This document shows, one piece after another, positions 1,536 through 61,979 of a stretch of 64,000 nt of DNA. The stretch lies in the NCBI RefSeq assembly GCF_000020325.1, contig NC_010730.1:1509501-1573500 (forward strand), read 5' to 3'. Position 1 is the stretch's first letter, and every line of letters starts with the position of its first letter. The translations under genes were made by a program, and so were the position numbers. The notes below the pieces were generated by a model, which had not been told where the DNA came from, ran no database searches, and worked only from the letters and a program-made list of their open reading frames with translations. Origin of the DNA: Sulfurihydrogenibium sp. YO3AOP1 (lineage in GTDB: Bacteria > Aquificota > Aquificia > Aquificales > Hydrogenothermaceae).

Positions 1536-1640
1536 GCGAGATGTAAGATGTGATGATTTTTTAAAGTTTTATACACTTCACACGTCATGCGTCATATTGT
1601 TTGTCATTTTTGACATTCTGTAGTAAAGGCGACATTAAAT

Positions 1641-1785
1641 GACTTGGATGAGAAATTAGCGATTTTCATAAAATTTAAAGAGGAGATCCTTCGGACTAAA
1701 GTCCTCAGGATGGCAAGGAAAACTTGATAATCAAGCATATGAAAGAAGAATCTCATATTTTTATTGAATTTCTCACACAGGGTAT
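1641..1785. repeat. Family 1 palindromic mobile element, copy 1
   Basis: Left end resembles GGTGAGAAATTAG (here GGATGAGAAATTAGCG) and right end is AATTTCTCAC, forming terminal inverted repeats. Inside is the hairpin core: GGAGATCCTTCGGAC, then AAAGTCCTCAGGATGGC. The second half of the core is degenerate here, ending in AAGAATCTCATATTT. The gap 1536-1904 holds nothing else except the hemN promoter. Confidence 0.7.
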
Positions 1786-8084: not shown

Positions 8085-8390
8085 ATATAGAAGGGTATTT
8101 CAAAAAAAATTAATAAGGATATTGTTTGCCTGTCATTCCGAAGCCGGTGAAGAAACTCCGTCTTTATAACTCTCAATTACTTACTTTCTCAACTTTTTAA
8201 AATAAGGAGACCATTCGGACTAAAGTTTTCAGAATGGCAAAGCCACCTAATGCTGTCATTCTGAGCGAAGCGAAGAATCTCCTGTTTTTCTTTTCAAGTC
8301 AAAAAAAATCAAAAGAGGAGATCCTTCGGCTTACAGCCTCAGGACGACACGGAAAGGTAAGCTTACAAAAATTTTAGAACGCTCTCTCCA
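8085..8390. repeat. Family 2 palindromic elements, two units
   Basis: Left end GAAGGGTATTTCAAAAAAAA and right end AAATTTTAGAACGCTCTC are inverted repeats of family 2 type. Between them are two hairpin-core units: one at about 8141-8237 (degenerate, with CGGACTAAAGTTTTCAG) and one at about 8251-8354 (GTCATTCTGAGCGAAGCG, then CGGCTTACAGCCTCAGGA). The remaining gap 8391-8478 shows no feature. Confidence 0.7.
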
Positions 8391-22388: not shown

Positions 22389-22535
22389 ACGTCGGGTGAG
22401 AAATTCGGTAAAAGTAGGAGATTCTTCGCTTCGCTCAGAATGACAAATAAGGTTATCCTTTTTCTGACGCTTATCATTCAACCTTTGACCGTCATCCTGA
22501 GGACTTTAGTCCGAAGGATCTCCTCTTTTAAATAA
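22389..22535. repeat. Family 1 element, inverted orientation
   Basis: Left end ACGTCGGGTGAGAAATTC. The interior has GAGATTCTTCGCTTCGCTC then AGAATGAC, a conserved linker including CTTATCATTCAACCTTTGAC, and then GTCATCCTGAGGAC and TTTAGTCCGAAGGATCTCC. The right inverted repeat is not clear. The rest of the gap to 22747 shows no gene; a degenerate GGCAATTCATAAAGTTGC near 22553 resembles the 20-bp palindrome family. Confidence 0.7.
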
Positions 22536-23580: not shown

Positions 23581-23693
23581 AAGAGATTATTCACCGGTTG
23601 TAGAATGACATATAAGATTATCTTTCCTCTAATGCCTTGTCGTTCAACCTTTGACTGCCATCCTGAGGACTTTGATCCGAAGAATCTTCGAAA
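23581..23693. repeat. Partial family 1 element between the paralogous pair
   Basis: Contains the element interior (GTAGAATGACATATAAG, GTCGTTCAACCTTTGAC, CATCCTGAGGACTTTGATCC) without clear terminal inverted repeats. It separates two duplicated genes of one operon, and the stop codon of the upstream gene lies at its edge. Confidence 0.65.
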
Positions 23694-28128: not shown

Positions 28129-28350
28129 GAGGGTGCTTTAAACTTTAATTAAGTCTAAAAATTAACTAACTTTTTATCGTCATTCTGCAGCCGGCGAAGA
28201 ATCTCTATATTTGTACCTCTAAAATATCGTTCTGCAGCTGGCGAAGAATCTCATTTTTTCGCTCTTTCTTAAAAAAGAGATCTTTCGGCTTTGCAGCCTC
28301 AGGATGACAAAAAGGCAAACTTGCAAAAATTTTAGAACACTCTTACTCAT
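28129..28350. repeat. Family 2 element with a duplicated left half
   Basis: Left end GAGGGTGCTTTAAACTTTAA, right end AAATTTTAGAACACTC. The left hairpin occurs twice (TCATTCTGCAGCCGGCGAAG and CGTTCTGCAGCTGGCGAAG); the right half carries CGGCTTTGCAGCCTCAGG. The rest of the gap 28056-28431 shows nothing else. Confidence 0.75.
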
Positions 28351-33206: not shown

Positions 33207-33432
33207 GAGGGTGCTTAAAATTTTGACTAAGTCTAAGAATTAATTAACCTTTTAATCGTCATTCTGAGCGAAGCGAAGAATCTCCGCCTTTTAACTCTCA
33301 CTTATTCACTTTCTCACTTTCTCACCTTCTTTAAAAGAGGAAATCCTTCAACTTACAGCCTCAGGATGACGAACAAAGGTAAAGTTATATTTACATGCAC
33401 ATTCTGCAACTGCAAAAATTTTAGAACATTTT
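33207..33432. repeat. Family 2 element
   Basis: Left end GAGGGTGCTTAAAATTTTGA, right end AAATTTTAGAACATTTTCTC. Contains GTCATTCTGAGCGAAGCG, a pyrimidine tract of repeated CACTTTCT-like units (33291-33330) and the right half CAACTTACAGCCTCAGGATG. The surrounding gap 33098-33484 has no gene. Confidence 0.75.
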
Positions 33433-33484
33433 CTCGTATCATTTAATTTCATATATAACTAATAACCTTTTTGCAAACTATTTA

Positions 33485-34710: not shown

Positions 34711-35124
34711 TATAATCATGAGAGTGTTTAAAAAAAAATTGATAAAGATATTATCTTGTCTGACATTCTGCAGCCGACGAAGAATCTTCGCCTTCATGTC
34801 CCTGTTCTGTCATTCTGAGCGAAGAATCTCCTTTTTCCTCAATTTTTAAAAAAGGAGATCCTTCGGACTAAAGTCCTCAGGATGACGGACAAAAATAAAC
34901 TCGTTTTACACATACATTATAAAACTTGCAGGAATTTTGGAACACTCTCTCTATAATCATGAGCCTGTTCCAAAAAACCAACATCGTCATTCTGAGCGAA
35001 GCGAAGAATCTCATATTTTTCTTTTCAAATCAAAAATCAGAAGAGGAGATCCTTCGGCTTACAGCCTCAGGATGACACGGAAAGGTAAACTTACTAGAAT
35101 TTTGGAACACCCTTCTATAATCAT
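34711..35124. repeat. Two tandem family 2 elements framed by three 9-bp direct repeats
   Basis: TATAATCAT occurs at 34711-34719, 34952-34960 and 35116-35124. Between the first two is one element (34720-34951: GAGAGTGTTTAAAA to TTTTGGAACACTCTC); between the last two a second (34961-35115: GAGCCTGTTCCAAAA to TTTTGGAACACCC). Each carries the hairpin core. The arrangement is that of two insertions, the second in the duplicated target of the first. Confidence 0.85.
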
Positions 35125-35159
35125 TGCAAAATATTTATTCTTTGCTATAATATCAAAAT

Positions 35160-35307
35160 GCCTTGGGTGAGAAATTAGCAGTTTTTATAAAATTTAAAAA
35201 GGAGATCCTTCGGACTTACGTCCTCAGGATGACGAGGAACTTCCGAATGATGTCATTCTGAGCGAAGCGAAGAATCTCCTACTTTTATTGAATTTCTCAC
35301 CCGACAT
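35160..35307. repeat. Family 1 element with 10-bp flanking direct repeat
   Basis: Cleanest family 1 copy: left end CCTTGGGTGAGAAATTAG, right end AATTTCTCACCCGACAT. The flanks ATATCAAAAT (35150-35159 and 35308-35317) are identical. The core has CGGACTTACGTCCTCAGGAT and CATTCTGAGCGAAGCGAAG. It lies 35 bases before mqnE and may have displaced its promoter. Confidence 0.85.
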
Positions 35308-35342
35308 ATATCAAAATCTCATGAAATAAAGGAGCTTGGAAT

Positions 35343-36694: not shown

Positions 36695-36838
36695 AAGGCT
36701 GCTTACAAAAATCAACATTGTCATTCTACAGCCGGCGAAGAATCTCTTTTTTCCCCCGTTTTTTAAAAAGAGATCCTTCGGACCTACGTCCTCAGGATGA
36801 CAAAAAAGGTAAACTTGCAAAAATTTTAGAACACCTTC
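36695..36838. repeat. Family 2 element
   Basis: Left end GGCTGCTTACAAAAATCAAC, right end AAATTTTAGAACACCTTC. Core halves GTCATTCTACAGCCGGCGAAG (cut to TACAGCCGGCGAAG in its hairpin) and CGGACCTACGTCCTCAGG. Lies between the convergent 79-aa gene and slyD. Confidence 0.75.
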
Positions 36839-40633: not shown

Positions 40634-40817
40634 ATATACCTTGAGTGAGAAATTGGGTAGAAGTAAGAGATTCTTCGCTTCGCTCAGAATGACATCTGAG
40701 GCTACCTTTCCTTTATGCTTATCATTCAACCTTTCGCTGTCATCCTGAGGACGTAAGTCCGAAGGATCTCCTTTTTAAATTTTATAAAAACCACTAATTT
40801 TTCACCCCAAGGTATAT
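40634..40817. repeat. Family 1 element with long inverted repeats
   Basis: Left end ATATACCTTGAGTGAGAAAT and right end ATTTTTCACCCCAAGGTATA are inverted repeats over about 22 bases. Interior as in the 22389 copy, with CTTATCATTCAACCTTTCGC linking the two hairpins. The gap 40510-40865 holds this, the relic above and a short AT-rich leader to the TtuB-like gene. Confidence 0.8.
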
Positions 40818-46035: not shown

Positions 46036-46286
46036 ACGTCGGGTGAGAAGTGAGAGTTAAGGAGGATGTTCCAAATTTTTAACTAAGTCTAAAAATTAAT
46101 TAACCTTTTGATCGTCATTCTGCAGCTGGCGAAGAATCTCCTCCCTTTCTTACCTATTACTTCTTATTTTCTCATTTTTTAAAAGAGGAGATCCTTCAGA
46201 CTAAAGTCCTCAGGATAACTGGCAAAGGTAAAGTTATACCTACGTAAACACTCTACAACTTAAAAAATTTCAGAACGCCCTCCCTA
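46036..46286. repeat. Solo family 1 end plus a complete family 2 element
   Basis: 46036-46050 carries only the family 1 end ACGTCGGGTGAGAAG. From 46060 a family 2 element follows: GGAGGATGTTCCAAATTTTT to AAATTTCAGAACGCCCTCC, with halves CATTCTGCAGCTGGCGAAG and CAGACTAAAGTCCTCAGGAT. The rest of the gap to 46351 is a short AT-rich leader. Confidence 0.7.
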
Positions 46287-50860: not shown

Positions 50861-51000
50861 TAGAGTGTTTCAAAAATCCACACTGTCATTCTGCAGCCGG
50901 CGAAGAATCTCATGTTTACAAAAAACATTAAAAAATGAGATCCTTCACTACGTTCAGGATGGCGTAAAGGTAAGTTTACAAGAATCCTTAAACAGTCTTA
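50861..51000. repeat. Family 2 element downstream of nuoF
   Basis: Left end AGAGTGTTTCAAAAATCCAC, right end AAGAATCCTTAAACAGTCTT. Core halves CATTCTGCAGCCGGCGAAG and CCTTCACTACGTTCAGGATG. It ends about ten bases before the insertion sequence. Confidence 0.7.
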
Positions 51001-53233: not shown

Positions 53234-53412
53234 GCGATCTTTATAGAATTTAAAAGGAGATCCTTCGGCCTTGCGGCCTCAGGATGACAAGGTAAGGGTA
53301 GGGGCAATTCATGAATTGCCCTTACACATCATACGTTTATAGTCGCCTTATTTGTCATTCTGCAGCCGTGGGAAGAATCTCACAATTTTATTGAATTTCT
53401 CGCCCTACATAT
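53213..53412. mobile_element. Family 1 element inserted at the 3' end of a gene
   Basis: Ends CCTGGTGAGAAATAAGCGAT and AATTTCTCGCCCTACAT. Contains CGGCCTTGCGGCCTCAGGAT, the 20-bp palindrome at 53302-53321 and CATTCTGCAGCCGTGGGAAG. It is flanked by an imperfect direct repeat of about 22 bases beginning GGAGATGATAGCT (53192 and 53413). It separates the two Asp/Ser/Trp-rich genes. Confidence 0.75.
53302..53321. repeat. Perfect 20-bp palindrome GGGCAATTCATGAATTGCCC
   Basis: Second copy of the palindrome at 16253-16272. It carries paired A and T where the first has G and C, so both arms changed together. Flanking bases extend the pairing partly (GTAG outside one arm, TTAC outside the other). Confidence 0.9.
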
Positions 53413-61753: not shown

Positions 61754-61979
61754 TATATAGTATTATATCAATATAACTTGAGTGAGAAATTAGTGATTTT
61801 TATAAAATTTAAAAATGAGATTCTTCGGACTAAAGTCCTCAGAATGACAGGAAAAAAGATTGAATGATAAGCATTAGAGAAAGATTAATCTTATTCGTCA
61901 TTCTGAGCGAAGCGAAGAATCTCCTACTTTTATGGAATTTCTCACCAAACGTGTAGGTTATATAGTATTATATCAATAT
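61754..61979. repeat. Family 1 element framed by a perfect 21-bp direct repeat
   Basis: The element (61775-61958) has ends ACTTGAGTGAGAAATTAG and AATTTCTCACC, both hairpin halves and the linker GATTGAATGATAAGCATTAG. The flanks at 61754-61774 and 61959-61979 are identical over 21 bases (TATATAGTATTATATCAATA then T). The duplicated flank contains TATTATAT, a promoter-like AT block upstream of gpsA. Confidence 0.9.

What the first reader, a model, noticed from the sequence alone, without database searches (positions are those of the whole stretch)
34720..35307. Twin-hairpin core with conserved GA/GA steps and covarying inner stems
Most intergenic elements share two hairpin units. Each has an outer stem ATYCT/AGRAT, a GA dinucleotide on both sides (which could form tandem sheared G-A pairs) and a variable inner stem. 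Inner stems seen include GGACTTTAGTCC, GGACGTAAGTCC, GGCTGTAAGCC, GGCCGCAAGGCC and GCGAAGC. Several change on both arms together, which is covariation expected from selection for structure. The family occurs at about 17 sites here, nearly always between genes. It could be an RNA element (mRNA 3' end, processing or terminator) or a single-strand DNA substrate for a REP/IS200-like transposase. The peptide shadow HSERSEES of the left half may appear in mis-annotated proteins of other genomes (recollection, not checked).
Basis: partly seen in the sequence, partly recalled or inferred. Interest (0 to 1): 0.72.

Follow-up and report, generated by a model that had tools for sequence, protein, structure and literature searches.

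The report
CGTC-type REP hairpins riding in MITEs
The paired hairpins are a real, structurally constrained repeat (a CGTC-tagged REP) found nearly unchanged in at least 21 bacterial phyla; in this genome they are not moved by the expected REP transposase but sit inside short inverted-repeat transposon remnants that insert with target-site duplications.

Summary
The unit GTC-ATYCT-GA-[inner stem]-GA-AGRAT-CT occurs about 650 times in this genome (Sulfurihydrogenibium sp. YO3AOP1, Aquificota, identified by its exact size), almost never inside genes, with essentially no matches in reversed controls. Inner and outer stems covary, in independent lineages too, and the favoured inner hairpins are xCGNAGx/GNNA, known as exceptionally stable single-stranded DNA mini-hairpins. 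The same 26-mer is multicopy in 50 of 50 tested genomes; the scanned contigs span about 20 other phyla. It fits the CGTC-tagged REP superfamily (Di Nocera 2013).

The IS200/RAYT idea is not supported. Two of three unit-rich Sulfurihydrogenibium genomes and 14 of 50 other carriers lack any Y1 transposase hit, and no Y1 locus examined is flanked by units. Instead, 83% of unit clusters here lie next to terminal inverted repeats of two MITE families, M1 and M2. Congeners show empty sites and target-site duplications of about 22-29 bp (M1) and 10-12 bp (M2). M1 ends match a degraded IS982-like transposon. The finding's region is two tandem M2 copies plus one M1 copy. An IS110 element inserts precisely into the units, with a matching bridge RNA. 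What spreads the units in most other phyla remains unknown.

The parts
34720..34949 (.). M2 composite A (TIR GAGAGTGTT...AACACTCTC, 230 bp) holding REP units 34762-34787(+) and 34856-34886(-)
   Evidence: TIR pair and flanking repeat
34961..35114 (.). M2 composite B (TIR GAGCCTGTTCCAAAA...TTTTGGAACACCCTT) holding REP units 34986-35011(+) and 35047-35076(-)
34711..34719 (+). direct repeat TATAATCAT, first copy (target-site duplication left of M2 A)
34952..34960 (+). direct repeat TATAATCAT, second copy (between M2 A and M2 B)
35116..35124 (+). direct repeat TATAATCAT, third copy (right of M2 B)
35158..35309 (.). M1 composite (TIR ATGCCTTGGGTGAGAAATT...GAATTTCTCACCCGACATAT) holding REP units 35203-35233(-) and 35252-35277(+); short flanking repeat ATATCAAA at 35150-35157 and 35308-35315
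1639..1785 (.). M1 composite with one REP unit (1684-1714 -)
8091..8386 (.). M2-type composite with three REP units
22419..22521 (.). REP pair (- +), heads facing
23657..23687 (+). single REP unit
28129..28344 (.). M2-type composite with three REP units
33207..33433 (.). M2-type composite with REP pair
36695..36838 (.). M2-type composite with a REP unit at 36720-36745
40668..40769 (.). REP pair (- +)
46062..46282 (.). M2-type composite with REP pair
50885..50963 (.). REP pair (+ -)
53258..53380 (.). REP pair (- +), inner stem GGCC/GGCC
61773..61954 (.). M1 composite with REP pair; about 27-bp flanking direct repeat
   Evidence: genome 1571273-1571454

Best explanation
The twin hairpins are CGTC-tagged REP units: about 26-31 nt, unpaired GTC tag, 5-bp outer stem starting AT/AT, GA/GA steps, inner GNA or GNNA mini-hairpin. 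In this genome they are built, at fixed distances from the ends, into two families of non-autonomous transposable elements (MITEs). SHOWN: the units, their covariation, their fixed place inside TIR-bounded composites (M1, M2), long (M1) and 10-12 bp (M2) target-site duplications, empty sites in congeners, co-distribution of the M2 ends with the units, and the match of M1 ends to a degraded IS982-like transposon. INFERRED: the composites were multiplied in trans by DDE transposases (IS982-like for M1, unidentified for M2) rather than by a RAYT; the units are selected, or carried, as single-stranded DNA hairpins, because the favoured inner loops are the exceptionally stable d(GCGNAGC)/GNNA type. 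How the bare units reached about 20 other phyla is not explained by this.
For: 83% of clusters (277/334) have an M1 or M2 end within 150 bp, against 14% (49/358) of REP-free intergenic spots. Nearly all paired composites of 90-420 bp hold units (32/34 M1, 32/32 M2, 16/18 M2b) and the TIR-to-unit distance peaks at 32/45 bp (M1) and 24/38 bp (M2). Direct repeats flank M1 (score >=13: 16/40 against 1.0 expected; commonly 22-29 bp long) and M2 (score >=10: 18/91 against 2.3). Empty sites: G002 lacks M1 at G000 1693652 and 600689; G000 lacks elements that G002 has at L687 9250, L689 15971, L694 7987 and L695 7071. M2 end 25-mer: 44, 69 and 48 copies in the three unit-bearing species, 0 in the four without. 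M1 ends bound an IS982-like ORF in G000 (NF033520 E=1.2e-8); 48 mostly fragmentary matches in G002, many ending at contig ends. No RAYT. GNA loops in 111/149 seven-base inners; d(GCGAAGC) melts at 78 C (PMC4686876).
Against: The IS982-like match is below NCBIfam's cut-off, and 22-29 bp duplications are longer than I recall for IS982, so the M1 family name is uncertain. No autonomous M2 element was found. Most dimers in other phyla (47/54) have no strong outer inverted repeat, so MITE carriage does not explain the pan-bacterial spread. A past, now lost RAYT cannot be excluded. The DNA mini-hairpin argument is indirect.
Confidence: 0.75

Rival explanations
1. Classical REPIN: the inverted unit pair itself is the mobile unit, moved as single-stranded DNA by a Y1 (RAYT/TnpA-REP) transposase that reads the GTC tag and hairpin; the MITE ends came later.
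For: Tag plus hairpin anatomy and inverted pairs are REPIN-like; structure is conserved; 36 of 50 carriers have some Y1 gene.
Against: No Y1 hit in G002, in G005 (82% complete) and in 14 of 50 carriers, including ones with 101-212 copies; no unit next to any examined Y1 gene; insertions here carry TIRs and target duplications, which IS200-type transposition does not make. Di Nocera 2013 also found no CGTC-transposase association.
Confidence: 0.15
2. RNA element: transcribed hairpins at gene ends acting as terminators, mRNA stabilisers or RNase sites, kept by host selection.
For: Clusters are relatively more common between convergent genes (84 clusters in 118 gaps, against 165/393 unidirectional and 66/156 divergent); a T-rich stretch follows the units; the dimer folds better than shuffles as RNA (z -4.0).
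Against: Also frequent between divergent genes, including the finding's own site; absent from four congeners; flanked by target duplications and empty sites; no Rfam match. Not exclusive with mobility.
Confidence: 0.15
3. The bare units spread between phyla by an unidentified non-Y1 enzyme or host process acting on the hairpin, and various MITEs repeatedly captured them.
For: Identical 26-mers, multicopy, in 50/50 carriers; 7/54 dimers in other phyla have outer inverted repeats of score >=12 against 0.3 expected in same-contig controls; two unrelated MITE families here carry units in opposite orientation.
Against: No gene family recurs beside units across loci; IS110 is present in only 19/50 carriers; the units are rare on plasmids and viral contigs.
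Confidence: 0.3

Closest known systems
CGTC-tagged REPs, families CGTC-1 to -4 (Di Nocera 2013, PMC3733652; include Neisseria dRS3 and Rickettsia RPE-4/RPE-6)
   Same: TGTC/CGTC tag, AT/AT first stem pairs, similar stem size, short loop, inverted dimers, intergenic, no transposase association
   Different: Tail here is mostly C(C) after ATCT, not CCA; Aquificota and many other phyla here are not in their five-phylum list; embedded in MITEs with TIR and TSD; the GNA/GNNA loop rule is not described in the parts of that paper I read
REPIN/RAYT system (GTAG REPs, TnpA-REP, subclasses 2.1-2.8)
   Same: Short tagged hairpins in inverted pairs, high copy number
   Different: GTC not GTAG tag; no RAYT in several unit-rich genomes; flanking TSDs
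Bacterial MITEs (TIR-bounded, non-autonomous)
   Same: TIRs, TSDs, 150-350 bp, non-coding, empty sites in relatives, M1 with a related transposase ORF
   Different: Interior is made of CGTC REP units, in two unrelated TIR families; M1 duplications unusually long
IS110/IS621 bridge-RNA elements that target REPs
   Same: IS110 copies here insert at one position of the unit; the 5' non-coding RNA carries matching left and right target guides
   Different: This concerns an element that uses the units as target, not what the units are; the target is a CGTC REP in Aquificota

Membership tests
CGTC-tagged REP superfamily | Unpaired CGTC (or TGTC/CCTC) tag at one end | tested here: met
   Base before GTC is T 69%, C 27% in this genome; T 192, C 37 of 239 in other phyla
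CGTC-tagged REP superfamily | Stem of 8-9 bp starting with AT/AT, loop 4-5 | tested here: met
   AT/AT pairs nearly invariant; 5 pairs + GA/AG + 2 pairs = 9 if the G-A pairs count, loop 3-4 nt; longer inner stems also occur
CGTC-tagged REP superfamily | Tail fitting CCA (most, not all, families) | tested here: not met
   Position +1 is C 86% and +2 C 62% after ATCT; variable in other phyla. The paper calls CCA usual, not universal, so this is a secondary feature
CGTC-tagged REP superfamily | Mostly head-to-head dimers | tested here: inconclusive
   Neighbour pairs within 400 bp: +- 145, -+ 128, same strand 56; other phyla +- 60, -+ 17; which end the paper calls head is not stated in the text read
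CGTC-tagged REP superfamily | Consensus sequences of families 1-4 | not testable with these tools
   Consensus is in Figure 2, which is not held
REPIN/RAYT | A Y1 (RAYT) gene in the genome flanked by the REPs | tested here: not met
REPIN/RAYT | GT[AG]G tag | tested here: not met
   Tag is [TC]GTC
MITE | Terminal inverted repeats | tested here: met
MITE | Target-site duplication and empty sites in relatives | tested here: met
MITE | Autonomous partner with the same ends | tested here: inconclusive
   M1: IS982-like ORF between M1 ends in G000 and six G002 fragments beside M1 ends, none shown intact; M2: none found
MITE | Mobilised in trans by that partner | not testable with these tools
   Needs a transposition assay
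Known RNA family (Rfam 15) | Match above gathering score | tested here: not met
   Only a tRNA in the window

The most novel reading that the evidence does not exclude
The GTC-tagged GNA hairpin is a pan-bacterial single-stranded DNA module that unrelated DDE elements capture and amplify and IS110 elements use as a bridge-RNA landing site, kept by a conserved non-Y1 host or mobile factor that recognises the hairpin.
Probability: 0.2. Interest if true: 0.82.

Novelty: new variant of a known kind. Interest (0 to 1): 0.6.

Why it matters
CGTC REPs were reported in 2013 in five phyla with no known transposase. Here the same hairpin is multicopy in carriers from about 21 phyla, often without any RAYT-type gene, and in one genus it is shown to move inside TIR/TSD elements. 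That makes the question of how these repeats spread directly testable, and the GNA mini-hairpin loop rule points to single-stranded DNA rather than RNA as the selected form. It also explains a source of spurious predicted peptides (CHSERSEES, CHPERSEGS).

Tried and rejected
RAYT/Y1 as resident mobiliser: rejected for this genus. IS256 (34 copies) as owner of the M2 ends: rejected, its ends are GGGAGTTAAAATAATGTTGTGTC. IS110 as the general mobiliser: in only 19 of 50 carriers. A gene family recurring beside units in other phyla: none; the neighbours look like ordinary genes. Carriage by phages or plasmids: rare (39 stretches of viral contigs in a collection of 2.9 million; 12 of 72,556 plasmids). 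Target-site duplication directly outside bare dimers in other phyla: no consistent signal. Literature search for the sequence or its peptide: no papers.

Full report
WHAT IS THERE. The window lies in a complete 1,838,442-bp genome, which is the size listed for Sulfurihydrogenibium sp. YO3AOP1, Aquificota (PMC4712552); the identification rests on that size. The finding's region holds six hairpin units. Genome-wide the outer sequence GTCAT[CT]CT...AG[AG]ATCT occurs 378 times exactly and 556 times with at most one mismatch, against 0 and 5 in the reversed genome. A curated set has 651 units. Only 22 lie in called ORFs, against 566 expected.

STRUCTURE. In 31-nt units, nine pairs are 94.4% paired, with 26 cells changed on both sides against 9.1 in shuffles and a covariation score of 0.290 against 0.154 (0/500 shuffles); sliding the partners destroys it (the 32 rows were picked by me from 87 distinct sequences). 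Within the genome this rests mainly on a few pairs (third outer pair, two innermost pairs, all units), and copies share ancestry, so the shuffle figure is not a probability. I therefore took independent contigs: 168 distinct inner sequences found by the outer sequence alone have a complementary first pair in 159 (shuffled mean 120.5, max 128), and complementary runs of two or more in 99 against about 24 for shuffled inners. Outer stems listed in other genomes also change on both sides (ATTCC/GGAAT, ATGCT/AGCAT, ATTTC/GAAAT, ACCCT/AGGGT) while GA/GA stays. Of 149 seven-base inners, 111 have the loop G-N-A; in this genome the commonest loops are G..A of four and three bases. GNA and GNNA loops closed by at least two G-C pairs are the exceptionally stable DNA mini-hairpins; d(GCGAAGC) melts at 78 C (PMC4686876). 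This favours a single-stranded DNA form, but does not exclude RNA. The ViennaRNA DNA parameters gave no unusual stability for a single 31-nt stretch with a GCGAAGC unit (z 0.21).

DISTRIBUTION. Many are MAG contigs, so single cases could be binning errors, but 50 of 50 carriers tested have 5-451 copies, reversed controls 0.

NOT A RESIDENT RAYT. This genome's only Y1 gene is an IS605-type TnpA next to TnpB. Congeners G002 (131 copies, 100% complete) and G005 (119 copies, 82% complete) have none; four other congeners lack the units. Among 50 carriers 14 have no Y1 hit, and the Y1 loci fetched (one per genome) bear no genuine unit within about 1.5 kb; the few pattern hits there look like chance. 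Several carriers are MAGs of unknown completeness, and not every Y1 copy was fetched.

MITE CARRIAGE. Unit clusters are flanked by two families of inverted ends: M1 (ATACSTYGGGTGAGAAATT) and M2 (GAGAGTGTTCCAAAA and variants). 277 of 334 clusters have such an end within 150 bp, against 49 of 358 REP-free intergenic spots. Distances from TIR to unit are fixed. In M1 the GTC tags face inward over a conserved spacer, in M2 they mostly face outward. Flanking direct repeats exceed permuted pairs: M1 16/40 with score >=13 against 1.0 expected, M2 18/91 with score >=10 against 2.3. Comparison with partial G002 and G004 sequence shows empty sites both ways, with duplications of about 23-28 bp (M1) and 10 bp (M2). 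The M2 end 25-mer occurs in exactly the three species that carry units. M1 ends bound an IS982-like ORF in G000 (NF033520 E=1.2e-8, under the family cut-off), and six related fragments in G002 lie next to an M1 end; G002 has 48 mostly fragmentary matches, many ending at contig ends, as expected of a multicopy element. Only more distant homologues (about 51-53% identical) are in the unit-free G004 and G006. In the finding's region the repeat TATAATCAT occurs three times, around two tandem M2 copies.

IS110 LANDING SITE. About 25 IS110 copies (PF01548/PF02371) end against a unit remainder: 25 of 25 right ends continue CAT[CT]CT, and 26 left ends follow GTCA. The 5' non-coding stretch folds with two loops; its 5' side TTCTGTCATT equals the unit's tag strand and its 3' side GATCAGGATG is the complement of CATCCTGA, the rule described for IS621 (PMC11208160). 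Some copies carry GCTGTAGAATG instead, complementary to the GCAGCC-type unit, although their own insertion sites are CTGAG-type: unexplained.

OTHER PHYLA. 7 of 54 dimers have outer inverted repeats of score >=12 against 0.3 in same-contig controls, so TIR composites recur, but most dimers have none. No neighbouring gene family recurs.

VERDICT. A real, structure-constrained CGTC REP; a new variant in being the interior of two MITE families, with a much wider distribution than reported. The mobiliser of bare units elsewhere stays open.

Noticed in passing
genome 12873-14177 and about 24 further IS110 copies (L002, L032-L111); outside the window coordinates: IS110 element inserts exactly at GTCAT^YCTGAG of the REP units; its predicted bridge RNA carries guides matching the unit, with guide variants (GATCAGGATG, GCTCAGGATG, GCTGTAGAATG).
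   Followed up: yes
IS110 copies at genome 112164, 1307080, 1380516, 1814753: Right target guide GCTGTAGAATG complements the GCAGCC-type unit, yet these copies sit in CTGAG-type units.
   Followed up: partly
M1 composites, e.g. genome 1711616-1711794, 622688-622887: Direct repeats of 22-29 bp flank M1 elements, unusually long for a DDE element.
   Followed up: partly
flanks and spacers of composites genome-wide: Another palindrome, core AATTCATGAATT (102 12-mer counts over both strands, in contexts like GGCAATTCATGAATTGCCC), recurs in spacers.
   Followed up: no
genome 652877-654173 and others: IS256-family element in 34 clustered copies, several inserted inside IS110 copies.
   Followed up: partly
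L223 1180-1252, L156 5132-5202, L203 4278-4352: REP dimers in Bacteroidota, Ignavibacteria and Cyanobacteria-labelled contigs enclosed by outer inverted repeats of their own.
   Followed up: partly
genome 354605, 749945, 822144: Three near-identical 112-aa ORFs, probably spurious ORFs in the three rRNA operons.
   Followed up: no
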